NCBI GenBank assembly: GCA_020845575.1
Contig: JADLFL010000059.1
Coordinates: 1-64,000, forward strand
DNA from: Acidobacteriota bacterium
Lineage (GTDB): Bacteria > Acidobacteriota > Vicinamibacteria > Vicinamibacterales > Vicinamibacteraceae
Reading direction: 5' to 3'
Length of the DNA stretch: 64,000 nt
A program made the translations under genes and the position numbers. The notes beneath the pieces were generated by a model. The model was not told the origin of the DNA. It saw nothing but the letters and a program-made list of their open reading frames with translations, and ran no database searches. Below, one piece after another: positions 24,131 through 59,591 of the stretch (positions are counted from its first letter, which is position 1; each line of letters opens with the position of its first letter).

Positions 24131-24144
24131 TGGCCGGAGGCGTC

Positions 24145-31600: not shown

Positions 31601-32222
31601 CGCATGGATGCGGATGACTCGTCGCCTCGGCGAGCAGGCGCTGTCGACGTTGCCAACGACCTTTCGTCCGCGAGTCGACGAGTTCGCCATTACGCAGATC
31701 AACAGCAATGGTGGCACGTTCCTGCGGGGACTCCTCGAGCACTGTCGTCCCTTTCCATCGAGTCCCATCGGCGATGAAGCGTTTCAAGCGGCGTGTTTTG
31801 AATGGACCATTGCAGCAGCCGACAACCTGGCGAAGCGGGGCGACCTCGAGGCTCTCTGTCGCGAGATTGGTCCCCTCTGTGCCGAGGCCAGGACCGCGAG
31901 TGACGTTGCTCCGGAGCACCTGCCAGTGTTCGAGCGCCTTCGCAGCGAACTGAAGGCGCGCTTTCACCCGCTCTTCCAGGACACACGGCTGCTCGCGACT
32001 CACGAGGTCAGTTGGCTGCTGGCGTCGCTGATGGTGTGGCGCTCGCTGGGTCGATTGCCATTCGCGACGTGCTCCGAAACGCTACTCGCACAGCTCTCGA
32101 CGCGGCTGTTCGATATCGCGCCTGCATTACTGGCGCACGACATAGTCAAGGTCTGTGCCATCGAGGCACTGCACACGCTCCAATCCAACCATGCCCCTGA
32201 ACCCCAGCTCGCTGACCAGTGA
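28671..32222 (+). CDS. Large unknown protein, DruH-like by position
   Basis: This 1183-aa protein heads the defence locus. I recognise no enzymatic motif. The N-terminal 240 residues look helical (FDDGFEKFEENFRKQLAGK). Residues about 250-850 are rich in short beta strands, suggesting several Ig-like or jelly-roll domains (TWQGSLDALVSEVGRYRIEL). The last 300 residues are helical again. There is no signal peptide, so it is cytoplasmic. It overlaps the DUF1998 helicase by 32 bases. A long protein of unknown fold directly before a DruE-type helicase is the layout of Druantia type III (druH-druE). That analogy rests on position and size, not on seen homology. Confidence 0.6.
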   Translation: MPTFDDGFEKFEENFRKQLAGKTLLGEIPFDEQYCDLLAEMFKGPLTQLGLGRGLQWIRARLPITFAMWLVNEAYYGYDGGLWPIVLPKLGLQHQPQSALLGKLFIEIIEAHKLPRFAKLNTKWSYLGPILAHCGIPKSRLPEFFEVVLPEAARIGVSSPEGLAEFEDHLEELRVAKVIDWFVRFGEKTSAEFLRRSVDMYRLARDGSDLPPAAALGLPERVRAAFADWRKTADIQGPESTRSRLRRPRLYVDPSQGLRLELPSQPCAPSHSELQWEIQVDSEANQLRRAPRFVGDTRTQADDVLLPKAFASVVVRLADPVGRALGIWVLNGVSPELPVIYFDPATTSLLPSQQVAAGVVGMMHPVGWSVALEPTTDAKTASVLSNLGALPFGWSAFRAAIFDLSGGTKVRFVDAQSIDRGTLELAEQLALPPRIDGVDVPFLMAPDRARVFSGSAPALLVAATLDEFRRDWHLRVSPVSELCDAAPPVVAPSAETLLAEAVDRDGKTWLRVPLDQPSLLGPRPWGVFDIAATGPMGQALRTRIATLPSIRLSHDWAEWRQGEMVQAQLSTNAQLTGADVRRVNHETWALPVGDGRAPLRVQFAGYGEQRWSIPLDLRLPMPSWSVFDESGAAHLVTWSSRPASVTLPDIDGRAPWLLARLETPWGIPHAVTASLCYHDRVLLSVPVPMEQSGFARLDLQRVMADARQAGLARTSLRLDLELTRTVSLQCLWVEHTWTVDHLSVTSDGDELRVTWNERVPVHGRVLRAYSLLQPWEAPRTVALGDDQSGTWQGSLDALVSEVGRYRIELGLEDEWTGSYQSVASAEWDHGHAEEWETAPLAGDSSIDGMLYRLLVAAASGRPLLPGHNAVGTDERAEELATKALLARQAVAHVPAVARQLDALLRRVDLWPLLRGVLAAGAAVTPRTLLELGVLTRPRFGAEGVPLSDERADALWRFWEPLGAWADLNAIEATGSQAAWMRMTRRLGEQALSTLPTTFRPRVDEFAITQINSNGGTFLRGLLEHCRPFPSSPIGDEAFQAACFEWTIAAADNLAKRGDLEALCREIGPLCAEARTASDVAPEHLPVFERLRSELKARFHPLFQDTRLLATHEVSWLLASLMVWRSLGRLPFATCSETLLAQLSTRLFDIAPALLAHDIVKVCAIEALHTLQSNHAPEPQLADQ

Positions 32223-35200
32223 CCTGATCGAGCAGTACTCGAGCTACCTTCGCAGTCGCTTTCACTTCCGCGACGCGGACCTGCGCGCGCAGTTCGCCAA
32301 GGCGCTGGGTGGCGATCGCCCGCTGCATGCGGGCCCATACCTCGAAGTACTTCCGGCGTTCAGGGCTGCTCGCAGCATCCGCGAGTTGAGCGCCGACGGT
32401 GTCCTTGCGCCTGAGTTCCTGAAGCTCGCCCCGAAGGCCGCCGACATTGAGCGGCCCCTCTATCTCCACCAGGAAGAGGCGATCACGAAGATTCAGGACG
32501 GGCGCAACGTCGTCGTGGCGACCGGCACGGGCAGCGGCAAGACCGAGACCTATCTGCTGCCGATCATCAGCCACCTGTTCGAGACGCTGTCGGCGGGCCC
32601 TCGCCGCCCCGCGGTGCGCGCGCTGCTGGTGTATCCGATGAACGCGCTCGCGAACGACCAGCTTAGACGAATCCGGCAGTTGCTCGCCGACGTGCCATCG
32701 CTGACCTTTGGTCGTTACACGGGCGAGACTCCGCAGACGAAGGACAAGGGCGAGGCGCGCTTCCGTCAGATGTGGCCGCATGAGCCAGTGCTGCGCAACG
32801 AACTCAAGAGCCGCGAAGAGATGTGGGCAGCCCCGCCCGACATCCTGATCACGAACTTCGCGATGCTGGAGTACCTCCTCGTCCGTCCGCAGGAAGCCGT
32901 CTTCTTCGCGCCTGGCACGGCCGAGTTCCTGAGGTTCCTCGTCTTCGACGAAGTCCACACCTACGACGGCGCGAAAGGCTGCGAGATTGCGATGCTGCTA
33001 CGACGGCTGAAGCATCGCATCGGGGCGACCGAGCGCGGACGCCTGCGATGCATCGCGACGAGCGCGACACTGGGCGGCGGGAAGGACTTCCCGGACGTCG
33101 CGGCATTTGCCGAACAGTTGTTCGATGAGCCGTTTGAATGGGGTGACCGAGCCAGCCGGCACGATGTCGTCCAGGCACACCGCGTCGAGTACGTCGAACC
33201 CGCTCGAACGTGGTGCCCTGAATCGTCGCTTTATCAACGGCTCGCCGACGCATTGACGTCGTCAGACCCCGGTGCGGCCTTGCTGCGCACCTGTCGCGCG
33301 ACCAGGCTGCCAACGGATGTCGTGGACGAGGCCCTCAGGGCGCTCGACGTCGAGGATGGGGCTGATGCGGCAGCGTCAGACCAGGAATCGGCCGACGACG
33401 AGTGGGGCTGGGGAACGCCGGCGGCAGCTCGCACAGAGGCCGCGCCGGCCGACGCTGCGCACATCAACCGCGCGTTGCATGTGCTGCTGCAGGGCGACGA
33501 GCGTATCGTTCGCCTTCGACGCGCCTGTGACAAGGGAGCGCGCCCGATCAATGAACTTGCGCGAGTCGTGTTCGAGGACCCCCTCGCTCCCGCGGTCGAC
33601 GGCCGCCTCCTGGCGCTGATTGGGCTGGCCGGCCGAGCAACAGCGCCGGATGGGCAGACCACGCTTCTGCGCGCTCGCTATCACTTCATGCTGCGTGCGC
33701 TCGAGGGCGGCTTCGTCTGCTTTGGGAAGCACGACGATGGTGCCCCGCACCTGCACCTGGAGCGGCGCACGACGTGTGCCGAGCACGGTCGCGACCACAA
33801 GACATTCGAGATTGGCGTTTGTCGCCGCTGCGGTGAAGCCGTGATCGCGGGAAGTCTTCAGCGAGACCCGATCACGCACCGTGACATCGTCGGCAGCGAC
33901 GATCCGACTCAGGACGCCCTGGTGGAGGACTCCGGACGTGTGCAGCGGGTGTTCCTGTCTTTGGCAGCGGCCGGGACAGAACGAATCGACGAGGACGAAC
34001 TCGACGCCGTCGACGAGGCGGCAGCGATCGGAGGCGACAAGGTCAAGCTCTGCGTTCGCTGTGGAACACTTGCGGAAGCAGGCGTGCAGGGTGACGTGTG
34101 TGAATGCGGTCCGCAGGCCGATGTTCGCGAGGCGTTCAAGTTGGAGGCGCGGGCTGGCGACTTGAAGGCCTGCCCGTCCTGTGGGACGCGCTCGCTGCAA
34201 AGGGAAGTGCTGCAACGGCTGTACACGGGACCAGACGAGCCAGTCGCCGAAGTGGCGACGACGTTGTTCCAGTCGGCCAATCGCGACCACCTCGACAAGG
34301 GTGCGCCGAAGCAGAAGCTCCTGACCTTTTCCGACAGCCGACAGGACGCTGCGTTTTTTGCACCGTACCTGGACAGCCTGTACAAGGCATCCCTGCGTCG
34401 CCGCGTGATGCTCGCGGCTATCGAGGCGGCTGACGGAGCGATGGCGGTTCCTGACTTGGCCACACGACTGGCTCAGGAGATCGAACAGCGCCACTGGCTT
34501 GGAATCAACGCCACCACCGGCGAGATCCAGACCGAGGCGTGGCGGTGGGTTGTGGGCGAACTGCTGCGCACGTCACGCGATCGCCGTAGCCTGGAGGAAC
34601 TGGCACTCGTCCGGTTCGCGTTGCGCCGTTTCCCCGACGTGCCAGCGCCGCCACCGCTGCTCCGCGCACCGTGGAACTTCACCGAGCAGGAGGCATGGGC
34701 GCTCGTCGAAGTGCTGGTCGACAGCCTGCGTGATCGCTTCATCATGGCGTCGCCTCCGGGAATCGTCCGCGATGACGAGGTGTACCTCCCCGGCCGCGGA
34801 GACATCGCGATCGCGGTCAAGCGCACGCCGAATGACCCGGGAACGCGGTCCTGGGTGCCGGAGCTGGCGCATCTCTCCAATGCCCGGCTCGATTATCTCG
34901 AGCGGCTCGCGACGCGCCGCGGGTTGGCGGTGAGCGCAGAACAGATTCGAACCTTCCTGGCCCAGCTGTTCACGCGCTACCTGACCGAGCCGGCCGGTGC
35001 ATTCGTCAAGCGGTACTTCGAGGCCGACAATCGAAATCTCGCGCAGGGTGTCGTCTATCGTCTGTCGCCACGCGGATGGGAGGTGTCACCGGCGCGTCTG
35101 TCTGGCACGGCCCACAGGTGTACCCGGTGCGGTGTGCGGACGTTCACGTCGATCAGCGGCGTCTGCCCGACCTATCGTTGTGACGGCGAACTCCACGCTG

Positions 35201-37440
35201 ATGTGGCACGAGACGATCGTGCCAACTACTTCGAGCGTCGCTACCGCGAGATGGCGGCACTGTGGCTGGTCGCCCGCGAGCACACGGCGCAACTCGACTC
35301 CGACACGGCGTCGGACTACCAGAACCTGTTCTTCGAAGGGCAGATCGACGTCCTGAGCTGCTCCACGACCTTCGAGCTCGGCGTGGACCTCGGCGAGCTC
35401 GAGACCGTGCTGATGCGAAACGTGCCGCCCACACCCGCCAACTACGCGCAGCGCGCTGGCCGTGCGGGCCGCCGCCTCGGCAGCGCGGCGTTCGTGGTGT
35501 CGTACGCGCAGCGCCGCTCGCACGATCTCACGTACTTCGGCGAACCACTTCGCATGATCGCCGGCCGCGTGCGCCCGCCGTCGTTCCGGCTCGACAACGA
35601 GCGGATCGTTCGTCGTCACGTCTACGCCACCGCCCTGGCGGAGTTCTTCCTGTCGCAGCCGAGTGCCTTCGGCAAGGGGCGACAGAGCGACTTGTTCGGC
35701 GGCGACGTCGCGGCCGAATCGCGGGTGGGCGAACTGGTGACATTCCTCGAAGGACATCCTGCTGGTCTCGGAGCGGGCCTGCAGTTCATCGTGCCCGCGT
35801 CGCTACAAGGTGAGCTCGGGATCAAGTCGTGGGGATGGCTACCGCGGTTCCTTTCGACTGGAGTGACGTCGGTCGCGAGCGTGCAGGCAGAGTACCGGCG
35901 GGACAGCGACTACTACCTGGGCGTTGAGCAGGAGGAGTCCAGGGCGGGGCACCACAAGCGAGCGGGGCTGATGAAGTGGGTGCGCAGCACGGTTCAGCGG
36001 CGCCCGTTGCTCGGCGTGCTGGCCAATCGCGGCTTGTTTCCCAAGTATGGGTTCCCGGTCGATGTCGTCGAGCTGGAAGTCGCACCGGAGGCCATCAACA
36101 ACGTCGTGCGCGGCGAGGGGCACAGTGCAGACAGTTTCGGATTGTCGCTGCAGCGAGATCTCCGTCTCGCCATCGCCGAGTACGCGCCTGGGAGTGAAGT
36201 CGTCGCGGCAGGCCACGTGTGGCAAAGCGCGGGACTCAAGGTGCTGCCCGACCAGCGGCTCGAAGAGCGGCGCTATTTGACCTGTGGATGCGGCGCATTT
36301 CAGCTGCTCGCCCCAGGAGAAGAACCCGCGGCGTGCCCGAACTGTGGTGCCGCGCACAATGGGCGGTTCCGCACCTACATCAAGCCGGAGTTCGGGTTCG
36401 TGACGACGACGCAGACGCCGAAGCGATCGACGACGCGCCGGCCAGGCCGCCAATACGCCTCCCGGCTGGCGTTTGCCGGCTACCTCGGAAGCCTGCCTCA
36501 GGAGTATACGGAGCGCTATCCGGGCATCCGCGTGGGAACGCCGCGGCAGGGGCGCCTTGTCAGTATCAACACCGGCTCCGCCAACCGCGGCTTCCGGGTC
36601 TGTCAATCATGCGGGGCTGCCGAGGTCATCCCGCACAAAGGCTTGCCGTTCCTGCAGTCGCACAAGAGTCCTCGCGGCCGCGATTGTACTGGGCAGGTCA
36701 GCTATCAGATCGACCTCGGCCATGACTTCATCACCGATGTTCTCGAGATCCACTTGAACACGCACCTGCCGATGCGTGTCGCCGACTGGTGGTCCGTCGG
36801 CTATGCCATTGCGGAAGGCACGACCTCCGCGCTCGGCATCAAGCGTGACGACATCGACCTTGCGCTCAGGCTCGCGCCGGAGGGCGGCTACTCGGTGTTC
36901 CTCACAGACTCGGTGCCTGGCGGCGCTGGCCACGTGGCGCGCATCCACGAACACCTGCCGCTCGTCCTCCGGAAGGCGCTGGATCGCGTGGAGCACTGCG
37001 CGTGTGAAGAGACCACGAGTTGCTACCAGTGCCTGCGCACGTACAGCAACCAGCGCATGCATGCGCGGCTTTCTCGAGGCGTGGCCGCCGCCTTCCTGCG
37101 CGAGGCCCTCGAACCGGCCCGGACCTCAGGTCGGGTCCGGCCGCCTGCCAGCCCGGCGAGCGAGGATCCCCTCGGCCTGATTCTCGACGCCGACGTCAGG
37201 GACGTCCTCCGCACGCTGGTCCCGCATGACGTTCCTGTTCCGGAGGTCGGCTTCGAGATCGTCGATGAACAAGGAGCAGTGGCCGGCGAGTTCGAGGCTG
37301 CGTGGCCGGCCAGCCACGTCGGCCTCGTGCTCGAGGCGCCGGACGCGCCCATGCCGGCGCCCTGGCGCGTGCTCAGGGCCGAGGACTTCCTGGCGCGGCC
37401 GGCTTCCCTGACCGAACTGCTCGCGGGCCCTGTCTCGTGA
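32191..37440 (+). CDS. YprA-type DEAD/DEAH helicase with DUF1998 (helicase 1)
   Basis: This 1749-aa superfamily 2 helicase has Walker A ATGTGSGKTE at residues 110-119, LLVYPMNALANDQ (Ia), DEVH at 253-256 and ATSATLGGG (III). The C-terminal RecA domain is STTFELGVDLGELETV with QRAGRAGRR. Zinc-finger-like cysteine pairs lie between the domains (CRRCG, CVRCG, CPSCG, CTRCG). The DUF1998 tail is FLTDSVPGGAGHVARIHE with HCACEETTSCYQCLRTY. The last 90 residues resemble a degenerate nuclease fold. Such helicases are the core of Druantia (DruE), DISARM (DrmA/B) and Dpd. The ATG at 32191 was preferred to that at 32155 as it begins the conserved-looking N-terminus. Confidence 0.85.
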   Translation: MPLNPSSLTSDLIEQYSSYLRSRFHFRDADLRAQFAKALGGDRPLHAGPYLEVLPAFRAARSIRELSADGVLAPEFLKLAPKAADIERPLYLHQEEAITKIQDGRNVVVATGTGSGKTETYLLPIISHLFETLSAGPRRPAVRALLVYPMNALANDQLRRIRQLLADVPSLTFGRYTGETPQTKDKGEARFRQMWPHEPVLRNELKSREEMWAAPPDILITNFAMLEYLLVRPQEAVFFAPGTAEFLRFLVFDEVHTYDGAKGCEIAMLLRRLKHRIGATERGRLRCIATSATLGGGKDFPDVAAFAEQLFDEPFEWGDRASRHDVVQAHRVEYVEPARTWCPESSLYQRLADALTSSDPGAALLRTCRATRLPTDVVDEALRALDVEDGADAAASDQESADDEWGWGTPAAARTEAAPADAAHINRALHVLLQGDERIVRLRRACDKGARPINELARVVFEDPLAPAVDGRLLALIGLAGRATAPDGQTTLLRARYHFMLRALEGGFVCFGKHDDGAPHLHLERRTTCAEHGRDHKTFEIGVCRRCGEAVIAGSLQRDPITHRDIVGSDDPTQDALVEDSGRVQRVFLSLAAAGTERIDEDELDAVDEAAAIGGDKVKLCVRCGTLAEAGVQGDVCECGPQADVREAFKLEARAGDLKACPSCGTRSLQREVLQRLYTGPDEPVAEVATTLFQSANRDHLDKGAPKQKLLTFSDSRQDAAFFAPYLDSLYKASLRRRVMLAAIEAADGAMAVPDLATRLAQEIEQRHWLGINATTGEIQTEAWRWVVGELLRTSRDRRSLEELALVRFALRRFPDVPAPPPLLRAPWNFTEQEAWALVEVLVDSLRDRFIMASPPGIVRDDEVYLPGRGDIAIAVKRTPNDPGTRSWVPELAHLSNARLDYLERLATRRGLAVSAEQIRTFLAQLFTRYLTEPAGAFVKRYFEADNRNLAQGVVYRLSPRGWEVSPARLSGTAHRCTRCGVRTFTSISGVCPTYRCDGELHADVARDDRANYFERRYREMAALWLVAREHTAQLDSDTASDYQNLFFEGQIDVLSCSTTFELGVDLGELETVLMRNVPPTPANYAQRAGRAGRRLGSAAFVVSYAQRRSHDLTYFGEPLRMIAGRVRPPSFRLDNERIVRRHVYATALAEFFLSQPSAFGKGRQSDLFGGDVAAESRVGELVTFLEGHPAGLGAGLQFIVPASLQGELGIKSWGWLPRFLSTGVTSVASVQAEYRRDSDYYLGVEQEESRAGHHKRAGLMKWVRSTVQRRPLLGVLANRGLFPKYGFPVDVVELEVAPEAINNVVRGEGHSADSFGLSLQRDLRLAIAEYAPGSEVVAAGHVWQSAGLKVLPDQRLEERRYLTCGCGAFQLLAPGEEPAACPNCGAAHNGRFRTYIKPEFGFVTTTQTPKRSTTRRPGRQYASRLAFAGYLGSLPQEYTERYPGIRVGTPRQGRLVSINTGSANRGFRVCQSCGAAEVIPHKGLPFLQSHKSPRGRDCTGQVSYQIDLGHDFITDVLEIHLNTHLPMRVADWWSVGYAIAEGTTSALGIKRDDIDLALRLAPEGGYSVFLTDSVPGGAGHVARIHEHLPLVLRKALDRVEHCACEETTSCYQCLRTYSNQRMHARLSRGVAAAFLREALEPARTSGRVRPPASPASEDPLGLILDADVRDVLRTLVPHDVPVPEVGFEIVDEQGAVAGEFEAAWPASHVGLVLEAPDAPMPAPWRVLRAEDFLARPASLTELLAGPVS

Positions 37441-37489: not shown

Positions 37490-40408
37490 ATGGTGACCGC
37501 GACCCGCATTCCCCTTGCCCCTGGTGCTCGCGTCGTGATCCGCGACGAGGAATGGATCGTCCGCCGCGTGGATCCCTCGTCCGACGGCGGTGATCTCCTC
37601 GTCTGCGACGGCGTTTCCGAGGTCGTGCGCGGCCGCACGGCGCAGTTCCTGACGGTCCTCGAGGACGATCGCATCGAGGTGCTGGACCCGGCGGAGACGA
37701 CGCTCGTGGCCGACACGTCTCCGCACTTCAACGCCGGCCTGCTGCACATCGAGGCGATGCTGCGGCGCAACCTGCCCAACGACGACCGCATCCGGCTGGG
37801 GCACCGAGCGGTGATGGACGTGGTGCCGTACCAGCTCGATCCGGCGCTGCAGGCGCTTCGGCAGCCGAGACAGCGCATCCTGATCGCCGACGCGACGGGG
37901 CTCGGCAAGACCCTCGAGGCGGGCATCCTCACCACCGAGTTGGTTCAGCGCGGTCGCGGGACGCGCATCCTCGTGGTGACGCTCAAGAGCATGTTGACGC
38001 AGTTCCAGAAGGAGTTCTGGACGCGCTTCTCGATTCCGCTCGTGCGGCTCGACTCCGTCGGGCTGGCCGCCGTGCGCAACCGCATTCCGGCCAACCACAA
38101 TCCGTTCAACTACTACGACCGCACGATCATCTCGATCGACTCGCTGAAGAACAACCTCGAGTACCGCAACTACCTCGAGCAGGCGTGGTGGGATCTGATC
38201 ATCATCGACGAGTGTCACAACGTGGCCGCGCGTGCGACCGACAGCGGCCTGTCGCGGCGCGCGCGCCTGGCTCGTCTGCTCGCGGGCCGTTCCGATGCCC
38301 TCGTCCTCTTGTCGGCAACGCCCCACGACGGGTCGGCGCGATCGTTCGCGTCGCTTGTCACCTTGCTCGACCCGACAGCAATCAGCGACCCCGAGGACTA
38401 CACGCCGGAGGACTACCGGGACAAGGGCCTGGTGATTCGGCGGTTCAAGAAGGACATCCGCGACCAGGTGCGGCAGCAGTTCGAGGACCGCGAGACCACG
38501 GTGCTGCGTGCCAGGGCGAGCGCCGAGGAAGACGCGGCGTTCGAGGCGCTGCTCGCAGTGCCGTTCACCCATGGTGGACATCGCACGGCGGGCAGGCAGC
38601 ATGAGCTCTTGCGGCTCTCGCTTCAGAAAGCGCTGTTCTCGAGCCCTGCGGCGGCCGCCCAGTCGACGCGCAATCGGATGGCTTCGCTCGAACAGCGAGA
38701 GCTGGTCACCAACGAGACGAGAGCGGAGCACGCCGCTCTCGCCGAGCTGCTGGAGAAGGTCGACGCCATCACGCCCGCGTGTTTCAGTCGCTGGCAGCGG
38801 CTCCTCCAGCTCCTGCGCGATCCGTCGTACGGATGGTCGGCACAGCAGGACGATGATCGGGTCGTGATCTTCTCGGAGCGCCTCGACACGCTGGCCTGGT
38901 TGCGCGAGGAGCTGGGACGCGCCCTGAAGCTGCGGGCAGACGACTCGGACACGAGCCAGGTCGCTGTGCTGCACGGCGAACTGCCGGACACGGCCCAAAT
39001 GGCGCTTGTCGAGCGCTTTGGTCGCCAGACTGACCCGCTGCGTATCCTCCTGTGCTCCGATGTGGCCTCGGAGGGCCTCAACCTGCACCACTTCTGCCAC
39101 CGGCTGGTGCACTTCGACTTGCCGTGGTCCCTGATGGTCTTCCAGCAGCGCAACGGACGCATCGACCGCTACGGCCAGACGCGGAAGCCGCTCATCAGCT
39201 ATCTGCTAACCAGCACCGACGTCGAGCGAATCAAGGGCGACCTCCGAATCCTCGAGGTGCTCCAGCGCAAGGACGACCGCGCAAACCAGGACCTCGGCGA
39301 TCCAAGCGCGTTCATGCACCTGTGCGATCCGGACGCCGAAGCAAAGAAGGTCGCAGAGGTCATGGCCGCCGGCACCGATGCGGAGGCTTTCGACCGCGAG
39401 CTCGAACGCGATGCGGCGACCACGACCGAAGGCGAGGGGGACTGGCTGTTGAACCTCTTCAACGCTCCTCCCGAAGCGACCACCTCGTCTGCGCTCGACG
39501 CCATCTCCGAGGCGCCGTCGCTGTTCCCCGACGACTATGGCTTCGCGAAGGCCGCGCTCGAGGAACTCGGGCGGGGCAAGGCCATCGCCCAGTGGTCGCA
39601 CCATGATGCGAGCCGCACCCTCACCGTGACAGCACCGGCGGACTTGCAGGCGCGGCTCCGGCAGATTCCGCGCGAGGCACGCGATGCCGATGATCGCTAC
39701 GTGCTGACCGTGGAGAGGGCGCACGTTGCCGAAGCCATCGAACGCGCCCGCCAGGCGAAGTCGGCCGAGGAGAGCTGGCCCGACCTGCAGTACCTCTGGC
39801 CGCAGCACCCAATCAGCGAGTGGCTCCGGGATCGCGTGCTGGTGCACTTCGGCCGGCACACCGCGCCCGTGCTCCGATCGCCTCACCTCGCTGAGGGCGA
39901 GCGAGCGCTGTTGATGCTCGCGCTGATCCCCAATCGAAAGGGGCAGCCGATGGTGGTGGAGTGGCGCGCCGTGGTCCTACACGCCTCGCACTCGACAGCC
40001 TCGCTCGAGGACTTCGGGACGTTTGTCGCGAGGGCGGGGCTGAAGGCCGGCGCGTTGCCGAATCCCAACTCGTCTCTGGACACCCTGGGCCTCCAGGCAG
40101 ATCTCCGCGTTGCGGTCGCCCGTATGCAGCAGCACATGGCCGAACGGCAGGCCGGGTTCGCTCGTGAGATGGAAGCGCGCCTGTCGTCAACGCTCGCCAG
40201 ACTCGAGGAACTGCAGGGTCGCCAACTGCTGCAGTTGCAACTCCGCTTCGAGGAGATGGGTGGGCCCGAGAACCTGCGCCGAGGGCAGAAGGCGCGCCGC
40301 GAAGGCGAGATCCACCGGGTGTTCGACGACTACAAGAAGTGGGTCGAGGACAGCCTCGAGACCGAGCCCCATCCGCACCTCCAGGTGCTCGCGGCGGTCT
40401 GCCGCTGA
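37490..40408 (+). CDS. SNF2/RapA-like helicase (DrmD-like)
   Basis: This 972-aa protein is a Swi2/Snf2 ATPase. The N-terminal small beta domain (LAPGARVVIRDEEWIVRRVD) is like that of RapA/HepA. Walker A is DATGLGKT at 134-141, DECH is at 240-243 and SATPHDG follows. The second RecA domain gives SDVASEGLNLHHFCHRLVHF and QQRNGRIDRYGQ. The C-terminal 250 residues include a coiled coil (ERQAGFAREMEARLSSTLAR). It resembles DrmD, the SNF2 protein of class 1 DISARM, and the next gene is a methyltransferase, as in that system. It starts 49 bases after helicase 1; a 19-codon frame (GTG 37437 to TGA 37496) bridges the gap. Confidence 0.88.
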   Translation: MVTATRIPLAPGARVVIRDEEWIVRRVDPSSDGGDLLVCDGVSEVVRGRTAQFLTVLEDDRIEVLDPAETTLVADTSPHFNAGLLHIEAMLRRNLPNDDRIRLGHRAVMDVVPYQLDPALQALRQPRQRILIADATGLGKTLEAGILTTELVQRGRGTRILVVTLKSMLTQFQKEFWTRFSIPLVRLDSVGLAAVRNRIPANHNPFNYYDRTIISIDSLKNNLEYRNYLEQAWWDLIIIDECHNVAARATDSGLSRRARLARLLAGRSDALVLLSATPHDGSARSFASLVTLLDPTAISDPEDYTPEDYRDKGLVIRRFKKDIRDQVRQQFEDRETTVLRARASAEEDAAFEALLAVPFTHGGHRTAGRQHELLRLSLQKALFSSPAAAAQSTRNRMASLEQRELVTNETRAEHAALAELLEKVDAITPACFSRWQRLLQLLRDPSYGWSAQQDDDRVVIFSERLDTLAWLREELGRALKLRADDSDTSQVAVLHGELPDTAQMALVERFGRQTDPLRILLCSDVASEGLNLHHFCHRLVHFDLPWSLMVFQQRNGRIDRYGQTRKPLISYLLTSTDVERIKGDLRILEVLQRKDDRANQDLGDPSAFMHLCDPDAEAKKVAEVMAAGTDAEAFDRELERDAATTTEGEGDWLLNLFNAPPEATTSSALDAISEAPSLFPDDYGFAKAALEELGRGKAIAQWSHHDASRTLTVTAPADLQARLRQIPREARDADDRYVLTVERAHVAEAIERARQAKSAEESWPDLQYLWPQHPISEWLRDRVLVHFGRHTAPVLRSPHLAEGERALLMLALIPNRKGQPMVVEWRAVVLHASHSTASLEDFGTFVARAGLKAGALPNPNSSLDTLGLQADLRVAVARMQQHMAERQAGFAREMEARLSSTLARLEELQGRQLLQLQLRFEEMGGPENLRRGQKARREGEIHRVFDDYKKWVEDSLETEPHPHLQVLAAVCR

Positions 40409-43400: not shown

Positions 43401-45590
43401 GCCGTGCAGGACGTGTCGCCGCAGTTGCACGATCGTCTCGGCCGCTTGCGCATCACGAGGCTCCGCGAGGCGTTCAAGCGGATCGGCGAGGTGGAGGCGC
43501 TGGCGAAGGCTCGTCGCTTCCTGCACTGGGAGCTGGCGTTCGCCGATGTGTTCCACACGCGCGGCGGATTCGATCTCGTGCTCGGCAACCCGCCGTGGAT
43601 CAAGGTCGAGTGGAACGAGGCCGGTGTTCTCGGAGAGGCGAACCCCCTGCTGGCGCTTCGCAAGACCAGCGCATCTGAGCTGACGAGGCTCCGCGCCGAC
43701 ACGTTCGCGACATTCCCGGCACTGCAAGGGGAGTGGACGATAGAACTCGAGCAGGCAGAAGGGACGCAGGAGTTCCTGAACGCCACACAGAACTTTCCGC
43801 TACTCAGAGGGGTTCAGACGAATCTATACAAGTGCTTTCTGCCTCTCACGTGGCGCGTATCAGCGACGACAGGAGTGTCCGGGCTAGTGCACCCTGAAGG
43901 TGTTTATGACGATCCGAAGGGAGGAGTCCTTCGTGAGCCCCTCTATCGCCGACTGAGATCTCACTTTCAGTTCCAGAACGAGCTCAGTCTCTTTGGGATT
44001 AGTCACACCAGGCGATACGGTCTCAATCTGTTCGGGCCCGACCGCGCGACTGGCTTCGATCTGATCTCAAACCTATTTCACCCCAGGACGATAGATGAGT
44101 CTTACGCTCACCCCGGCAGAGGCCATGTGCCAGGCTACAAGTCTCAGGGTGAATGGGAGCTAGCTGGCCATAGAGACCGCATCGTTAGAGTTAGCGATAA
44201 CGAACTAGCCGTATTCGCATCGCTGTACGACGAGCCAGGCACGCCATCAAGTCGTGCGCGCTTGCCTTCGCTGCACGCCGGCGCCATGGCGAGCGTGCTC
44301 AGAAAGCTGGCAAGGTATCCGACGCGGCTTTCCGCTTTGGGCGATGACTACTCCTTGACGTGGATGTGGGACGAGACTCGGCAGCAGGCAGACGGCACCA
44401 TAAGCCGTAGAAAGGGAGAGTGGTTTCCCGCGACTCCTTCGGAGTTGATCATCTCAGGTCCCCACATATTCGTCTGCAACCCGTTCTACAAGTGCCCGCG
44501 TCGAGTCTGTACTGCGAATGGTCACTATGACGCTGTCGAGCTGAAGGCCTTGCCGGATGCCTACTTGCCCAGAGGCAATTTTCGGCCCATGGTCGATAGG
44601 GACGAGTACAAACGACGAATTCCGCGTGTCCCTTGGCTGAATGACGACGGGCACCGAACTCCCGTGACAGGGGACTACAGGCTTGCGGCCAGAAAGCGTC
44701 TCGCTCAGTCGGGCGAGCGAACGCTTGTGTGCGCACTCGTCCCTCCAAATGTCGCCCACGTGATCAGCTGCGTAAGTGCTTCTTTTCGATCCCGAGAAGC
44801 ACTGTTGGCTACTTCTGCCGCAGCATCTTCAATTGTCCTCGACTTCTTTGTGAAGTCAGCAGGGTGGGCCGACCTTACCGCAAGCGGAACGAAATTGTTT
44901 CCTTTGCTTCCGTATTCAATGGACTTAGGCACTCGCGTACTAGCGTTGAACTGCTTAACTCGAGATTACGCGCGCCTTTGGGGATCTGCGATTGGAGCGG
45001 CAGCGCGCAGCCAATCGTGGAGCCAGCCGAACAATCCGAGATTGCCGCAGAACTTCTTCGCAGAGTTGACCTCGGAGTGGACACCCGCTTGCGCGCTACG
45101 CAATGACTATGCACGCCGATTGGCGCTGGTAGAGCTCGACGTCTTAGTAGCGCGGGCTCTTGGCCTCACACTAGACGAACTCCAGCTCATTTACCGAGTG
45201 CAGTTTGCGATCGTAGCGCAAAACGAGTCCGATACCTGGTACGACATGCACGGTAGCGTCGCGTTCACGGCAAATCGAGGACTTCCCGGCGTTGGCCTTC
45301 CGCGCAGAGGCGGCCCAGGGAACCCTGCGACTCGCATTACATACGTGGATGGGCGAACTGTTTCCGGCAACGCGGGTTGGGAGGACGTGTGCGAAGTGCC
45401 TGAGGGCACCGTCATCGAACAGGAGGTCCTCGACGACACGCTCCCGAACGGCCCGCATAAGAAGACCCGTCGCTGGGTCGCGCCGTTCGCGCTTGCGAAC
45501 CGCGAGGACGATTACCGCATTGCGTGGGAGTACTTCCAGTCCCGGAGTGCGGTCGACGCCGCCGGCAACGAGGCTTTGCGGCACGGCTAA
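40425..45590 (+). CDS. PglX/Eco57I-like adenine DNA methyltransferase (DrmMI-like)
   Basis: This 1721-aa protein has the N6-adenine methyltransferase pattern. SASYYTPQVLTACLVKYALK precedes motif I PAMGSAAF at 655-662, then NVFGVDLNPVAVELAEVSLW and motif IV NPPW at 1055-1058. An acidic run of D, E and G (about 512-541) precedes the catalytic core. The N-terminal 500 residues are helical and unassigned. ATG 40425 was chosen; the upstream frame overlaps the SNF2 gene. From about 43780 to 45300 (residues about 1119-1626) GC content is much lower, and this covers the expected target-recognition part. In BREX and DISARM such enzymes mark host DNA. Confidence 0.88.
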   Translation: MAILDTAAQTFAGITNENEFFGHHYLAEVFRGDIRNQLDAWLAREEATKGVDGVGRDGGSPSRPEIIRAPQKVLAGLGGRWFVGRKALADARDEDAFREAFLDLQRPLLAALGYTVAPDVATLVDGHPFRVWCRAGQHPASHAASRVLVIPAAAYRHLEDDLLDQPIDVSLYPGAAPEHARDATWADWLSDAVFGADEGAPRFVLLLGADDWLLLDRLKWPNNRALRLSWGEILDRRDTPTIEATAALLHRESLAPDEGTPLLDGLDENAHKHAFGVSEDLKYALREAIELLGNEAARQLRAQAEAKKLSVFAGRAELDAEQLSLECLRLMYRLLFVFYIEARPELGYVPIRSEMYLKGYSLEALRDLELVQLDTPRARDGLFFDDSLRRLFRLIHEGSGAALQQSLRDAAEGAKPTVTLAPLDSRLFDPEATPLLNLVRFPNQVWQRVIALLSLTSGKGRGRRGRVSYQLLSINQLGAVYEALLSFRGFFAKEDLFEVQPAAKKTAAAASSDQDDEVEGDEDGDEDDADAGESEGAGRRGNRSTQGGAAGVRRRDDLEVGWFVPEARLADYAEDERVYELDEHGHRRLRRHAKGSFIYRLAGRDREKSASYYTPQVLTACLVKYALKELLRLDDTDPAKRLKADDILSLTVVEPAMGSAAFLNEAVNQLAEKYLELKQAELGTRIPHEAYPRELQKVRMYLADRNVFGVDLNPVAVELAEVSLWLNAIYGDAPDEQGHPRPARGPWFGYQLFDGNSLIGARAEVYAATSIAKGAKPAWHEQAPRRLDPQAPDRRADEVYHFLLPDPGMASYTDKVAKGLYADDFARLKVWRKTFCAPLQSYEIARLQQLSAKVDDLWAAHAAQLQGDRRATEDHLSVWPAEGHNDTITSRASKEAIRRQGLLNEDGDEATPYRRLKLVMDYWCALWFWPIRASHRLPSRDEWWMEVGAILEGNIVDVSPDLPLPFGYDRPGVPLVTANAPRLPEFEEQPALAVQDVSPQLHDRLGRLRITRLREAFKRIGEVEALAKARRFLHWELAFADVFHTRGGFDLVLGNPPWIKVEWNEAGVLGEANPLLALRKTSASELTRLRADTFATFPALQGEWTIELEQAEGTQEFLNATQNFPLLRGVQTNLYKCFLPLTWRVSATTGVSGLVHPEGVYDDPKGGVLREPLYRRLRSHFQFQNELSLFGISHTRRYGLNLFGPDRATGFDLISNLFHPRTIDESYAHPGRGHVPGYKSQGEWELAGHRDRIVRVSDNELAVFASLYDEPGTPSSRARLPSLHAGAMASVLRKLARYPTRLSALGDDYSLTWMWDETRQQADGTISRRKGEWFPATPSELIISGPHIFVCNPFYKCPRRVCTANGHYDAVELKALPDAYLPRGNFRPMVDRDEYKRRIPRVPWLNDDGHRTPVTGDYRLAARKRLAQSGERTLVCALVPPNVAHVISCVSASFRSREALLATSAAASSIVLDFFVKSAGWADLTASGTKLFPLLPYSMDLGTRVLALNCLTRDYARLWGSAIGAAARSQSWSQPNNPRLPQNFFAELTSEWTPACALRNDYARRLALVELDVLVARALGLTLDELQLIYRVQFAIVAQNESDTWYDMHGSVAFTANRGLPGVGLPRRGGPGNPATRITYVDGRTVSGNAGWEDVCEVPEGTVIEQEVLDDTLPNGPHKKTRRWVAPFALANREDDYRIAWEYFQSRSAVDAAGNEALRHG

Positions 45591-46453
45591 CGCTTCATGT
45601 GCTCCTCCGCTTCGGCAATCTCGAAGAACTCGTCCTGTGTGATGATCAAGGATCCGAGACCGCGCGCCGTCCTGAGCTTGAGTGTGTCGTCGAATCCCAT
45701 CAGCTCGCCTTGCACCAACGCCGCCGCTGTCGGCAACGCAGAAGCCTTCATTCCGATGAAGCCCCCAAGCTTTTCGACGTATGGATAGAGCCGCGAAGGC
45801 CGTGGCCAGTCGTGGATGCGTCCTGTGAACACGAACGTGTTGCCCTTGATGCGCTTCGGTAGCGTCCTCCTCCGCGGCGCTGGATCAGGCTCCTTGCGTG
45901 TGCGCTCGCGGAGCCGCGCCGCCTCGGCCAGGTTGTCCTTGCGCTCTTGCCAAGCAGCGCGGTATGCGGCGAACCAGTCGGGCGTCACGGGAGTGGCATA
46001 TGCGCCGTGGAACATCGCCTCGAACTGGGCCGCGAGGTCGGAGATGGCCTGGCGGTCCTCGATGAGGACATTGGCCTCGTAGTTGGCGGCCAAGCCACCG
46101 CCTGTCAGATTCGATGAGCCGACGATGGCGGCGGTGTCGCCGAAGACCCACAGCTTCGCGTGAAATGCCCGCGCCGCTGGCGAGGCGAAGCGCTTCACGG
46201 TGAACGAGGTCAGGTGCTGCCCGACAAGGTCTTGGAGGGCTGCGATGGCCTCGGGATGCGTTGGCAGGTCGGTCCCGAACAGGAACTCTCCAGTGGAGCC
46301 CCGTTTCAGTGCCGCCTGCAGGTCCGGAAGCAACTGCTCCAGCCCAGTGGCACTGACCAGGGCCATCGCGACATGAAAGGTGCTGGACCTGGCGATGTGC
46401 TGGCGAACTGCCTTGATGAGAGCATCTTCCTTGACGAGCGCGGTAACGGACAT
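45587..46453 (-). CDS. Phospholipase D-like nuclease fused to a BRCT domain
   Basis: This 288-aa protein lies on the opposite strand. The PLD part (residues about 1-170) has FHAKLWVFGD with H98 and K100, then AAIVGSSNLTGGGL. A single HxK motif suggests it acts as a dimer, as in DrmC. Residues about 198-284 look like a BRCT domain: GNTFVFTGRIHDWPRPSRLY, YVEKLGGFIG, LVQGELMG and SLIITQDEFFEIAEA mirror the C-terminal domain of NAD-dependent DNA ligase. ATG 46453 was chosen because it starts the conserved part. Its 3' end overlaps the methyltransferase stop by four bases, tail to tail. Confidence 0.82.
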   Translation of the reverse strand: MSVTALVKEDALIKAVRQHIARSSTFHVAMALVSATGLEQLLPDLQAALKRGSTGEFLFGTDLPTHPEAIAALQDLVGQHLTSFTVKRFASPAARAFHAKLWVFGDTAAIVGSSNLTGGGLAANYEANVLIEDRQAISDLAAQFEAMFHGAYATPVTPDWFAAYRAAWQERKDNLAEAARLRERTRKEPDPAPRRRTLPKRIKGNTFVFTGRIHDWPRPSRLYPYVEKLGGFIGMKASALPTAAALVQGELMGFDDTLKLRTARGLGSLIITQDEFFEIAEAEEHMKR

Positions 46454-52500: not shown

Positions 52501-53000
52501 CGCCCGCCCAGGCACCGACGCCGGAGGCATTGAAAGCTTCCTGGCGGGAATGGCTGGAGCTGTTCAACGAGCTGCAAGTGCTGCCCGGCACGTTCCTGAT
52601 GGAGCAGGTCGGTATCGAGCACGGCGACTATGGCGGCCTCGCGCCTGCGGCGGTGAGTTCGTCGGTTCCAGTGCCCGCGGACGAGACCGACGGTGAGGCC
52701 CGCGCCTGGGACGTGGCCATTGGCCAGGCGGTAGGCGAGATGCATGAAGGGATGAGGGCTCTCGCCGCGCGTGGGGTGCCGGCTCCAGACGCGGTCGGCG
52801 TGGAGTTGGCGTCGACGAGCGGCGGCGTGATCGCCGAGGCCGAACTGCAGTGGGAGCAGCCGCATCTCGTGGTGCTGGCGCCCCACCAGGCCGAGCAGGT
52901 CGAGGCGTGCAAGGCGGCTGGCTGGCAGGTGGTGCTGGCTGTAGATTCAGGCTGGGCCGATACGGTCGCCCTGGCCATCATCGAGGTCGCAGACGTATGA
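46569..53000 (+). CDS. YprA-type helicase with DUF1998 and nuclease-like tail (helicase 2)
   Basis: This 2143-aa superfamily 2 helicase has Walker A TGTGSGKTE at 98-106, VIYPMNALANDQ, DELH at 230-233 and GTSATLGDG. The second domain shows LSATPTLEMGVDIGSLSSLL and QRVGRAGRRDGNAIVV. Cysteine clusters include CGACGRLNDSPGTCADC and CPSCHH...CPRCG. The DUF1998 part is LLYDSVPGGTGYLHQLLSED with ACPCNAVPEKDGCYRCLYQY. Near residues 1770-1800, VRPDFVIQP and IAVFADGWAYHRG look like a Vsr/PD-(D/E)XK fold. The final 350 residues are unassigned. It is 40% longer than a DrmA and best fits the DruE-like branch. Its stop overlaps the next ATG. Confidence 0.85.
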   Translation: MLPSILAHELSESTRRFLITAFEPADAYFGGIVRRFVDTPGAIGKGPYLQLGLPFRAGTGARAFFPRFETEHPGFSHQEHAWRRLRSDAAPSNTLVVTGTGSGKTECFLYPVLDHCARQKEQGAARGIKALVIYPMNALANDQARRFAEVVARTPAFAGLRVGMYIGGGGQGSAVMTPTTVITDRDTLRKAPPDVLLTNYKMLDYLLVRPKDRSLWAHNAPDTLRYVVVDELHTFDGAQGTDLALLLRRLRARLGTPPEHVVCVGTSATLGDGDTAPLRTYAGQVFASAFEVESVVAEDRDSVAQFLGEAPINHLLQSRDDFAEILDAQRYRSQAEAIAAWFPVFFAGEAVPTDVSDPAWRCALGRLLKQHLLVHNLLRVLKGGIGEWSVLCEQLTGPMPAAARPHAPRVLDALVALLAWARDVKDPNLPLVTVRVQLWMRELRRLVASVVPLATGGDNAPVDLPALRTAADLKAAREGLHLPLVQCIECHTTAWVGLRQSGSVKVDSVLEAIYNAWFRSAPELVRLYGDATLDLPCQRYLCGACGRLNDSPGTCADCRHLGLVPVFELQDYQQSKRGDVTYNWHDKTCPACGAHDRLLLLGARNATLGAQLIEQGWATPYNDDKKLIAFSDSVQDAAHRAGFFGSRTYRNNIRMAIARVVDALAQPSVPWTSLLDQLPTWLLDPARLGHLTPEAFVSEFIGPDMLWQHPWEALQRDGSLPAGSKLLARVRKRLAWEAVAEFTYLSRRGRTLDRLAFATLTLPADALEPSVDAVHRRLVEAFGLREVTRDQVRHWLWGIVLHLRQRGAITHDEMKGYALSGWLGTLTFDRGRRDWLPPIGPFSHHPQLLTLGKHRDFEVLIDRGRSWYEQWLRVTIGHGLLLPKGSERELYETALSELIAADVLQPFDGRDGRAIALRAERLEVDRDAVQLGASSGTRELTVSRALAPVVLGMPCLDAMHERYTGIVEPDDAEMWMVRRYRHGDIRRVIAAEHTGLLERDEREALEDRFKAKPSDAKPWYENLLSATPTLEMGVDIGSLSSLLLCSVPPSQASFLQRVGRAGRRDGNAIVVTLADGASPHDLYFYEEPFEMMAGEVAPPGTFLQAPEVLRRQLLAFCLDTWVASGIAATAFPDKTKPALDAVERKDEARFPYNFLNFVQNDEHGLLDRFVALLDYQPQDEVERRGVVRVLNRLREYMFGEGGVDALRVGLLKVLEELRRERHAYLERARDIKKEIERLKQQPKDEARDAQLRDHIRERGKLLELAKGISDRDLLNTFTDAGLLPNYAFPEAGVELKSLLWRRRHADDEPGGGLYVTITQRFERPAASALSEFAPENRFYANQRRVQIDQINMQLAKTEDWRLCPSCHHLENVLVSGDAHPACPRCGSAMWGDIQQRRTLLRFRQAVANANDEKSRIDDRSDDREPRFFIRQLLVDFDPNDVVVAWRLQDEHLAFGFESIRRAQFRDINFGEMGRQGVSFSVADWETTRPGFKVCRHCGMVQTPPPRRRPGEKPGPVQKHARDCQWWGKDLPEAVLDCLYLYREFSSEAVRILVPYTRTGLNETVLQSFMAALQLGLKRHYGGKVDHLRITTQEEPGADQGPKRHYVLLYDSVPGGTGYLHQLLSEDAQTLTQVLQKAYATLRACPCNAVPEKDGCYRCLYQYRQGRALSKVSRRAAEDLLGELLGSIEHLERVKSLSEIHINAQLDSILEGQFIECLSRIGGTAGLPKIKVTQDIVQGRTGYLLEVGAERYWVRLQVDVGPDDGVGAFVRPDFVIQPVRGTSTRRPIAVFADGWAYHRGAVRADAQKRSALVASEKYWVWSVVWEDVQAALAGNVEATQDVMAAHARLGVSDPLVVKVRSSLGRGSGTISEHAVARLVRWLSDPADDPDDGALRRRQREAAVLAARLIVHPQSPDIPAARGALQAVAAALPDGHHEAPLDAAVGWSKEPLRAAVVRLAWPQAYMRGDFSAGFGAITLAPAQAPTPEALKASWREWLELFNELQVLPGTFLMEQVGIEHGDYGGLAPAAVSSSVPVPADETDGEARAWDVAIGQAVGEMHEGMRALAARGVPAPDAVGVELASTSGGVIAEAELQWEQPHLVVLAPHQAEQVEACKAAGWQVVLAVDSGWADTVALAIIEVADV

Positions 53001-55093
53001 GTATCGCTCCACGCGTGGCGCTGTCGCAGGACTTCCTTCTCAAGCTCGGGAAGCTGCCAGCCGCTGTTCACGCCAACGTCGTGAAGTGGGCCCTCAAGTT
53101 CCAGCAGAACCCGACGGCGCCAGGCATCAACTACGAGGTCATCCGCGCCGCGCGCGACCGGAACCTGCGGTCGATTCGCATCGACCAGGACTGGCGCGGC
53201 ATCGTGTTCCGTCCCGAACAGGGAGACCTGTACATCCTCTTGCACGTCGACACGCACGACGAGGCCTATCGTTGGGCCGAGCGTCGCAAGTTGTCGGTGA
53301 ACCCGGTGACCGGGGCTATGCAGATGGTGAACCTCGAGGCTGTCGAGGCCCAGGCGGCTCCGGAAGCCCACGTTCGCGTTGCGCCTGCGGCAGACGCGCC
53401 AGCGCCGGCCCGCGAGGAGGTGGCCGCTCCGGCAGCCTCACCGCTGTTCAAGGACCTCACCGACGAGCAGTTGGTGCAGATCGGCACACCGCCGGAACTG
53501 ATTCCCATCGTGCGTTCGATGACGTCGGACGCGGACCTCGACCATGCGCAGGAGTTATTGCCCGTCGAGGCGTACGAAGGCCTGTTCCTGATTGCCGCGG
53601 GCGACTCGGTTACCCAGGTGCTCGTCGGACGCGAGACGCGGGTGGACCGCAAGGTCGATCCCGACGACTTCGTCACGGCCCTCGACACCGCTGAGAGCCA
53701 GTCGCGCTTCGTCGTCGTGACCAGCGACACGGAGATGTCGGCCATCCTCAACGCCCCGTTGCAGCAGTGGCGCGTGTTCCTGCATCCCACGCAGCGCAAG
53801 CTGGCCGACGGCGACAGGAGCGGGCCGGTCCGCGTGCTCGGTGGCGCCGGCACAGGGAAGACGGTACTCGCGATGCATCGCGCCGTGTGGCTCGCGAAGC
53901 ACAGGGCTTCACCCGAGAAGAAGGTCCTCTTCACGACGTTCACGCGCAACCTGGCGTTGGACGTCGAACACAACCTGAAGTCCCTGTTCCTTGGCGACCC
54001 GGCCTCAGCCAACGTGGAGGTCACCAACCTCGATCGGTGGGTACACGGATACCTGCGCAGGAAGAAGTACCCACATCGTATTGCCTACGGCCTGCAAGAC
54101 GACCCATGGCGGAGCGCCCTGGAACTCGCCCCTGCATCGCTGGGCCTCGATGACGCGTTCTTCGCCGATGAATGGTCGCAGGTGATCACGGCCCAGGGGA
54201 TCGACTCGCTCGACGACTACCGGAAGGCGTCGCGCGTGGGACGGGGCACCGTCCTCACCCGGGCCAAGCGAGACCAGATCTGGCCCGTGTTCGAGGAGTA
54301 CCGGCTGCAGCTCAGCTCGCGTCAGCTCAAGGACGCCGACGACGCGTTCCGCGACGCCGCGGCGCTACTCGCCAGCGAGAAGGAGTCGCTCCCGTATGGC
54401 TCCATCATCGTCGACGAGACGCAGGACTTCGGGCAACAGGCGTTGGTGCTGCTGCGCGCGATGGCCGCGAAGGGACAGAACGACCTCTTCTTCGTGGGTG
54501 ACGGGCATCAGCGCATCTACGCGCGCCATCGGGCTGCGATGGGCAAGTGCGGCATCGACATTCGTGGCCGCTCCAGGAAGCTGTACCTGAATTACCGCAC
54601 GACCGAGGAGATCCGCCGCTTCGCTGTCGCGCAGCTCGAGGGCCGCGAGATTGACGACATGGACGGCGGGACGGACGACAATCGTCTGTACAAGTCGCTG
54701 TCCCATGGCCCCGCGCCGGAGCAGGTCGAGACCTCGAGCCCCGACCAGGCCTTGGACGTAGCGATCGCGCGCATCACAGGTTGGCTGAGCGACCCAGACC
54801 TGCCGGCTGGAACGGTGTGCCTCATGGCACCCTCCAAGAAGCTGCGCGGCGCCGTGGCCGACCGGCTGAAGGCGGCGAAGCTGCCCGTGAGCGTTGTGAC
54901 GTCGGAATCGGCTGACACAGCGTCCGGCGACGCCGTCCGCGTGGCCACGATGCATCGGGCGAAGGGATTGGAGTTCGACCGGGTGGTGGTGCTGGCTCCC
55001 AAGGGGGTCGAACCTGCGGGCGGAACCGATATCGCGCAATTGATCTACGTGTCGCTGACGAGAGCCAAGACGGCCGCCGTCCTCGTCCGGTGA
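52997..55093 (+). CDS. UvrD-like helicase with RelE-like N-terminal domain
   Basis: This 698-aa protein starts at ATG 52997, overlapping the helicase 2 stop (ATGA). Residues 1-95 (LPAAVHANVVKWALKFQQNP, LRSIRIDQDWRGIVFR, YILLHVDTHDEAYRWAERR) resemble the RelE/ParE toxin fold. A linker follows (100-260). The superfamily 1 helicase has GGAGTGKT at 282-289, SIIVDETQDFGQQAL, KLYLNYRTTEEIRR, TMHRAKGLEFDRVVV and YVSLTRAK. All main UvrD motifs are present. The toxin-like part may bind RNA or ribosomes or may simply be a structural module; its catalytic residues cannot be judged from sequence alone. Confidence 0.85.
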   Translation: MSIAPRVALSQDFLLKLGKLPAAVHANVVKWALKFQQNPTAPGINYEVIRAARDRNLRSIRIDQDWRGIVFRPEQGDLYILLHVDTHDEAYRWAERRKLSVNPVTGAMQMVNLEAVEAQAAPEAHVRVAPAADAPAPAREEVAAPAASPLFKDLTDEQLVQIGTPPELIPIVRSMTSDADLDHAQELLPVEAYEGLFLIAAGDSVTQVLVGRETRVDRKVDPDDFVTALDTAESQSRFVVVTSDTEMSAILNAPLQQWRVFLHPTQRKLADGDRSGPVRVLGGAGTGKTVLAMHRAVWLAKHRASPEKKVLFTTFTRNLALDVEHNLKSLFLGDPASANVEVTNLDRWVHGYLRRKKYPHRIAYGLQDDPWRSALELAPASLGLDDAFFADEWSQVITAQGIDSLDDYRKASRVGRGTVLTRAKRDQIWPVFEEYRLQLSSRQLKDADDAFRDAAALLASEKESLPYGSIIVDETQDFGQQALVLLRAMAAKGQNDLFFVGDGHQRIYARHRAAMGKCGIDIRGRSRKLYLNYRTTEEIRRFAVAQLEGREIDDMDGGTDDNRLYKSLSHGPAPEQVETSSPDQALDVAIARITGWLSDPDLPAGTVCLMAPSKKLRGAVADRLKAAKLPVSVVTSESADTASGDAVRVATMHRAKGLEFDRVVVLAPKGVEPAGGTDIAQLIYVSLTRAKTAAVLVR

Positions 55094-57653: not shown

Positions 57654-57689
57654 TCCGCTTTCGTGGACATCTTCCGAGAGGTGGATACG

Positions 57690-59558: not shown

Positions 59559-59591
59559 GAAAGCCGCGGCCTTCTTCGCGAAGGACCACCG

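What the first reader, a model, noticed from the sequence alone, without database searches (positions are those of the whole stretch)
45587..46453. PLD nuclease fused to a BRCT domain
Seen: HxK plus GSSN of a PLD nuclease at residues 98-115, followed at 198-284 by a region matching the BRCT pattern of NAD-dependent DNA ligase (FVFTG, LGG, GLGSLIITQDEFF). Known: DrmC of DISARM is a PLD protein with no BRCT domain that I recall. A BRCT module could direct the nuclease to DNA ends, nicks or a partner protein. The gene is also reversed relative to the operon it seems to belong to.
Basis: partly seen in the sequence, partly recalled or inferred. Interest (0 to 1): 0.7.

Follow-up and report, generated by a model that had tools for sequence, protein, structure and literature searches.

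The report
PLD nuclease–BRCT fusion inside ARMADA
A small DNA-cutting enzyme joined to a DNA-ligase-type end-recognition (BRCT) module sits backwards inside a recently described bacterial anti-phage gene cluster (ARMADA), and it probably uses that module to find broken or nicked phage DNA.

Summary
Window 45587-46453(-) encodes a 288-aa protein with a single-motif PLD nuclease domain (HxK and GSSN; Pfam PLDc_2 3.7e-12), a charged helical linker, and a C-terminal BRCT domain (about residues 200-288). Pfam misses the BRCT. It is supported by a LigA-BRCT profile (18.2 bits; best of 20,000 shuffles 8.2), tblastn to LigA C-termini, and an AlphaFold model (LigA BRCT Z 10.4, RFC1 BRCT Z 9-10; the input alignment held LigA rows). 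Four residues aligning with the presumed 5'-phosphate pocket (T210, G211, R218, K259) are kept. The DISARM label is wrong: the surrounding genes are ARMADA type II in canonical order (armA-armB-armC-armD), downstream of a Druantia-like helicase. The fusion gene splits armB from armC on the opposite strand, its stop codon overlapping armB's. That junction is variable: 4 of 12 loci read carry an insert there, each different. The fusion is rare: the only other trace in about 890 searched genomes is a truncated linker-BRCT piece. Most likely it is an accessory nuclease that BRCT directs to 5'-phosphorylated ends or nicks. Anatomy is well supported; function is inferred. New variant of a known kind.

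The parts
45587..46453 (-). PLD-BRCT fusion gene, 288 aa
   Evidence: ORF; Pfam PLDc_2; LigA-BRCT HMM; AlphaFold model and structure search
46004..46429 (-). PLD nuclease domain, residues 9-150; H98, K100, GSSN 112-115, E126
   Evidence: Pfam; invariant columns across PLD relatives; indices
45857..46003 (-). Linker, residues 151-199: 'DWFAAYRAAWQERK' helix, then a basic Pro/Arg stretch
   Evidence: sequence; helix 158-187 in the model; the helix also present in L059
45590..45856 (-). BRCT domain, residues 200-288; presumed phosphate pocket T210, G211, R218, K259
45587..45590 (.). Overlapping tail-to-tail stop codons of armB (TAA, +) and the fusion gene (TAG, -): CTAA
   Evidence: sequence
37490..40408 (+). 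armA: BrxHII/RapA-like SNF2 helicase, 972 aa
   Evidence: PADLOC DrmD/BrxHII models; 46% identical to E. coli plasmid copy
40425..45590 (+). armB: PglX-like / type IIG-like adenine methyltransferase, 1721 aa
   Evidence: Pfam Eco57I; PADLOC; 46% over 98% of length to E. coli
46569..53000 (+). armC: YprA-type helicase with MZB/DUF1998, 2143 aa; 'VRPDFVI...DGWAYH' near 1769-1797 looks like the Vsr-type nuclease
   Evidence: Pfam DEAD, Helicase_C, MZB; tblastn; motif positions; Vsr assignment by reading
52997..55093 (+). armD: GajB-like UvrD helicase with conserved N-terminal domain (RelE-like in ARMADA II), 698 aa
   Evidence: 43% identical over 675 columns to the E. coli plasmid copy; PADLOC GajB; Pfam
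32155..37440 (+). DruE-type (Druantia) helicase directly upstream
   Evidence: PADLOC DruE1 616 bits; BLASTP to the DruE-position gene of an E. coli plasmid
28671..32222 (+). 1183-aa protein with no family match, in the position of a Druantia partner gene
   Evidence: no similarity to the gene in the same position in E. coli
23876..25332 (+). tRNA-Met followed by a tyrosine integrase: likely island boundary

Best explanation
The gene encodes an accessory anti-phage nuclease carried within an ARMADA type II locus. The PLD domain has one HKD-type motif, so it should dimerise to form an active site that cuts DNA without metal or strict sequence specificity. The BRCT domain is of the LigA/RFC1 class; the RFC1 member binds 5'-phosphorylated duplex ends, nicks and ss/ds junctions, and this one would dock the enzyme on such DNA. 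These structures are what the ARMADA and Druantia helicases act on or expose in phage DNA, so the likely outcome is degradation of phage replication or entry intermediates that those motors have opened. Shown here: the two domains, conservation of catalytic and presumed pocket residues, and the ARMADA II setting. Inferred: dimerisation, DNA-end binding, nuclease activity, cooperation with ARMADA.
For: PLD domain and motif. BRCT by profile, tblastn and model. Closest solved relatives are LigA and RFC1 BRCTs. Isolated RFC1 BRCT binds DNA with Kd about 10 nM and prefers 5'-phosphate ends (PMC9293009). The aligned residues T210, G211, R218, K259 are invariant in this protein, in L059 and in all LigA BRCTs aligned; that the RFC1 counterparts (T415, G416, R423, K458) form the pocket is from memory. 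ARMADA II gene set and order. Druantia III DruE engages ssDNA-containing intermediates (PMC13192584), which supports the substrate logic.
Against: No other ARMADA II locus examined carries the gene, including eleven read individually and E. coli, where 519 genomes match the armB-armC junction. ARMADA II works in E. coli without it. Reversed orientation argues against a co-regulated subunit. LigA's own BRCT is dispensable in one Thermus ligase (PMC10244674), so DNA binding by this BRCT is not guaranteed. The fold model used LigA BRCT rows; the single-sequence model had no confidence. No expression or activity data.
Confidence: 0.45

Rival explanations
1. Independent cargo: a self-sufficient defence or mobile-element gene that landed in a tolerated insertion site between armB and armC and does not work with ARMADA.
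For: The armB/armC junction carries unrelated inserts elsewhere: an ImmA/IrrE-type peptidase gene recognised by reading (L047), an antisense two-gene TPR-GreAB-C-PIN system (L051), and a small transposase-like gene recognised by reading (L048). The fusion is on the opposite strand and absent from other ARMADA II loci. The only other trace lies in a genome without a detected ARMADA methylase.
Against: Stop codons of armB and the fusion gene overlap, a tight fit; base composition resembles the neighbours; nuclease and end-binding functions suit helicase-based defence.
Confidence: 0.35
2. The BRCT is a protein-protein module that tethers the PLD nuclease to a partner (an Arm protein, host LigA, the clamp, or a phosphorylated protein) rather than to DNA.
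For: Most BRCT domains are protein-interaction modules (stated in PMC9293009).
Against: The closest relatives are LigA and RFC1 BRCTs, the DNA-associated class; the presumed phosphate-pocket residues are kept.
Confidence: 0.15
3. It is DrmC of a DISARM system.
For: PADLOC DrmC models match the PLD core (4e-13).
Against: NCBIfam DrmC 38 bits against cutoff 133; no BRCT in DrmC as described; no separate DrmA/DrmB pair; operon matches ARMADA II.
Confidence: 0.02

Closest known systems
ARMADA type II (Bell et al. 2025, PMC12458937)
   Same: Same four genes in the same order, 42-46% identical to an E. coli plasmid copy for armA, armB and armD and 38% for armC, with a Druantia-type helicase upstream as in E. 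coli islands, next to a tRNA and integrase
   Different: Carries a reversed PLD-BRCT gene between armB and armC; no stand-alone nuclease gene is described for ARMADA II
HIT-PLD-helicase-DUF3427 proteins (e.g. L111:1319-4945)
   Same: Closest PLD domains found in the class, 27-36% identical over residues 8-191, with a similar 'TPDW...YR' segment after the domain
   Different: There the PLD domain leads into a DEXH helicase and DUF3427; here into a linker and BRCT, with no helicase
DrmC of DISARM
   Same: Small PLD nuclease next to helicases and a methyltransferase of related families
   Different: Scores far under the DrmC cutoff; no BRCT described; different operon
LigA (NAD-dependent DNA ligase) and RFC1 BRCT domains
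   Same: Fold, length, presumed phosphate-pocket residues, C-terminal position in LigA
   Different: Attached to a PLD nuclease; divergent enough that Pfam BRCT misses it; a two-residue-longer loop near 236-242 and a longer one near 250-257

Membership tests
PLD superfamily nuclease | HxK and GSxN active-site motif in a PLD-like domain | tested here: met
   H98, K100, GSSN 112-115; PLDc_2 46.7 bits, cutoff 27
PLD superfamily nuclease | Two motifs per active site, here by homodimer | not testable with these tools
   Only one motif in the chain; no oligomer data
BRCT superfamily, LigA type | Sequence relationship to LigA BRCTs above chance | tested here: met
   18.2 bits against best shuffle 8.2; tblastn to LigA C-termini
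BRCT superfamily, LigA type | BRCT fold | tested here: met
   Z 10.4, rmsd 1.8 over 76 residues to LigA BRCT; caveat: LigA rows were in the input alignment
BRCT superfamily, LigA type | Score over the Pfam BRCT gathering cutoff | tested here: not met
   No PF00533 hit at E 0.1, nor in its own genome at 0.001. A detection threshold, not a feature of the fold
BRCT superfamily, LigA type | Binding to 5'-phosphorylated DNA (property of the RFC1 member) | not testable with these tools
   Aligned residues conserved, no binding data
ARMADA type II | Four genes in order: BrxHII-like helicase, PglX-like methylase, YprA-like helicase, GajB-like helicase | tested here: met
ARMADA type II | ArmD with N-terminal RelE-like domain | tested here: met
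   43% identity to E. coli ArmD from residue 5 on; the RelE assignment itself is the paper's
ARMADA type II | Vsr-type nuclease at the YprA C-terminus | tested here: inconclusive
   PD...DGWxxH-like motif at 1769-1797 by reading; no Pfam hit
ARMADA type II | Phage protection | not testable with these tools
DISARM | Separate DrmA helicase and DrmB DUF1998 genes | tested here: not met
   One 2143-aa protein carries both helicase and MZB
DISARM | DrmC over the NCBIfam cutoff | tested here: not met
   38.2 bits against 133

The most novel reading that the evidence does not exclude
ARMADA type II loci have a dedicated swap site between armB and armC that holds exchangeable effector or control modules, and here it holds an end-sensing nuclease in which a ligase-type BRCT selects 5'-phosphorylated nicks or ends exposed by the ARMADA/Druantia motors.
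Probability: 0.2. Interest if true: 0.65.

Novelty: new variant of a known kind. Interest (0 to 1): 0.45.

Why it matters
I found no description of a PLD nuclease joined to a BRCT domain in the open-access papers searched, and BRCT does not occur in the main text of the ARMADA paper. If the BRCT binds 5'-phosphate ends, this is a simple example of a defence nuclease guided by DNA end or nick structure rather than by sequence or modification, an open question for DISARM, Druantia and ARMADA. The armB/armC junction as a variable slot also gives a concrete place to look for further ARMADA accessory genes.

Tried and rejected
DISARM/DrmC membership: rejected on gene content and score. Chance BRCT resemblance: rejected by shuffles and by independent LigA hits. 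A family of PLD-BRCT fusions next to DUF1998 helicases: not found in 193 genomes of the class, 396 of the phylum, 298 of another order, about 85,000 species genomes by degenerate patterns, 72,556 plasmids, 50,697 phages or IMG/VR; pattern scans reach close relatives only, so remote fusions could be missed. Single-sequence AlphaFold model: no confidence. Foldseek's best hit by E-value (SauUSI) has TM 0.21 and rmsd 23, so it was not used. The PLD half of the model is low confidence and was not interpreted. No sigma-70 promoter or relevant terminator at the junction. The 1183-aa upstream protein does not resemble the E. coli gene in the same position, so the upstream pair is called Druantia-like rather than type III. 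A paper that would confirm the RFC1 pocket residues is not held. Notebook entries 1 and 2 use ArmA and ArmC the other way round from the paper; the report follows the paper.

Full report
WHAT IS THERE. The ORF at 45587-46453 on the minus strand encodes 288 aa. Residues 39-147 match Pfam PLDc_2 at 3.7e-12. H98, K100 and GSSN 112-115 are present, and H98, K100, S113 and N115 are invariant across 14 aligned PLD sequences. The chain has one motif only, so by the known rule for such nucleases it should act as a homodimer (inference). Its closest PLD relatives in the class are the N-terminal PLD domains of HIT-PLD-helicase-DUF3427 proteins, 27-36% identical over residues 8-191.

THE BRCT DOMAIN IS REAL. 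No Pfam or NCBIfam BRCT model reports it. Five lines nevertheless agree. Phmmer against PDB chains puts the LigA BRCT 1l7b first, over the whole domain. Tblastn over the class hits C-termini of NAD ligases with E 5e-5 to 6e-4 per genome. A pattern scan of about 85,000 genomes with an alignment of this C-terminus and L059 returns three loci, all LigA C-termini. A profile built only from LigA BRCTs scores the protein 18.2 bits while the best of 20,000 shuffled versions scores 8.2; the independent homologue L059 scores 32.4. An AlphaFold model built with eight sequences has ten-residue mean pLDDT 69-91 for residues 200-288 and aligns to LigA BRCT with Z 10.4, rmsd 1.8 over 76 residues, and to RFC1 BRCTs with Z 9-10. 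That model is not independent of the sequence evidence, because LigA BRCT rows were in the alignment; without them confidence was nil.

ITS LIKELY SURFACE. The nearest solved structures are LigA and RFC1 BRCTs. The isolated RFC1 BRCT binds DNA with a Kd of about 10 nM and prefers 5'-phosphate ends, held in a groove (PMC9293009). I recall, but could not confirm in the held papers, that the RFC1 pocket uses T415, G416, R423 and K458. In the alignment these columns correspond to T210, G211, R218 and K259 here, and they are invariant in this protein, in L059 and in every LigA BRCT aligned. LigA's BRCT is not always essential for ligation (PMC10244674), so conservation does not prove DNA binding.

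THE NEIGHBOURHOOD IS ARMADA TYPE II, NOT DISARM. On the plus strand lie a BrxHII-like helicase (37490-40408), a PglX/type IIG-like methylase (40425-45590), a YprA-type helicase with MZB domain (46569-53000), and a GajB-like UvrD helicase (52997-55093). This is the strict gene order of ARMADA type II, named armA, armB, armC, armD (PMC12458937). An E. coli plasmid carries the same genes in the same order at 38-46% identity, again downstream of a Druantia-type pair. Directly upstream here is a DruE-type helicase preceded by an unclassified 1183-aa protein. A tRNA-Met and a tyrosine integrase at 23876-25332 suggest a mobile island, as described for these systems.

WHERE THE FUSION SITS. It separates armB from armC on the opposite strand. 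Its stop codon overlaps that of armB (CTAA at 45587-45590), and 115 bases separate its start from that of armC. I read 12 loci with armB followed by armC, the window included. Eight have no gene between them (L043, L044, L045, L046, L049, L055, L056, L058). Four do: this one; an ImmA/IrrE-type peptidase gene, judged by its HExxH-type motif on reading, in Haematobacter (L047); an antisense two-gene TPR-GreAB-C-PIN system (L051); and a short transposase-like gene judged by reading (L048). No insert was seen at armA/armB or armC/armD in the loci where those junctions are covered. In E. coli 519 genomes match the junction, and the full-length rows listed span 1,993-2,005 bases, so have no insert. 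The sample is small and was not drawn evenly.

HOW RARE. Searches with the full protein found no complete second copy in the class (193 genomes), the phylum (396), plasmids, phages or IMG/VR. One genome of the same phylum has a linker+BRCT piece 39% identical over 122 residues at a contig edge, preceded by a stop codon and followed by a resolvase-like gene, with no PLD half found in that genome. It looks like a broken copy. No armB was detected in that genome at the threshold used.

MECHANISM. The best reading is a nuclease steered to 5'-phosphorylated ends or nicks by its BRCT, helping or supplementing the helicase-based ARMADA and Druantia machinery. Druantia III's DruE engages ssDNA-containing intermediates (PMC13192584), and DISARM has been proposed to borrow PLD nucleases (PMC9142583), so the substrate logic is plausible. 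The main rival is that the gene is independent cargo in a tolerated site; the reversed orientation and absence from other ARMADA II loci favour that. I give 0.45 to the first and 0.35 to the second.

VERDICT. Observation confirmed, interpretation partly right. The new points are the PLD-BRCT fusion itself, its location in ARMADA II rather than DISARM, and the armB/armC junction as a variable slot.

Noticed in passing
window 55161-56465 (+): A second PLD-type protein (434 aa, no BRCT seen) lies directly after armD; its N-terminus matches PLDc_2 and NgoFVII-type PLD weakly, its C-terminal half is unassigned. A similar protein is in L014 (404 aa).
   Followed up: partly
window 28671-32222 (+): 1183-aa protein with no match in Pfam, PADLOC or NCBIfam, directly before a DruE-type helicase; possibly an undescribed Druantia partner.
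   Followed up: partly
L051 6743-12794: An antisense two-gene TPR-GreAB-C-PIN conflict system inserted between armB and armC of an ARMADA II locus.
   Followed up: partly
L057 1-14887: In Cylindrospermopsis the order is changed: armC-armD come before armA-armB.
   Followed up: no
L111 7774-12228 (-): A 1484-aa ankyrin-repeat protein with a C-terminal BRCT domain lies near a HIT-PLD-helicase-DUF3427 gene and a SprT-like gene; the BRCT in the matching ORF of L110 also scores strongly on the LigA-BRCT profile.
   Followed up: partly
window 25426-27748 (-) and 57593-60449 (+): IS21-type IstB/IstA genes near the integrase, and transposase genes (IS3-like, IS110-like) after the defence cluster, suggesting a much-rearranged island.
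   Followed up: no
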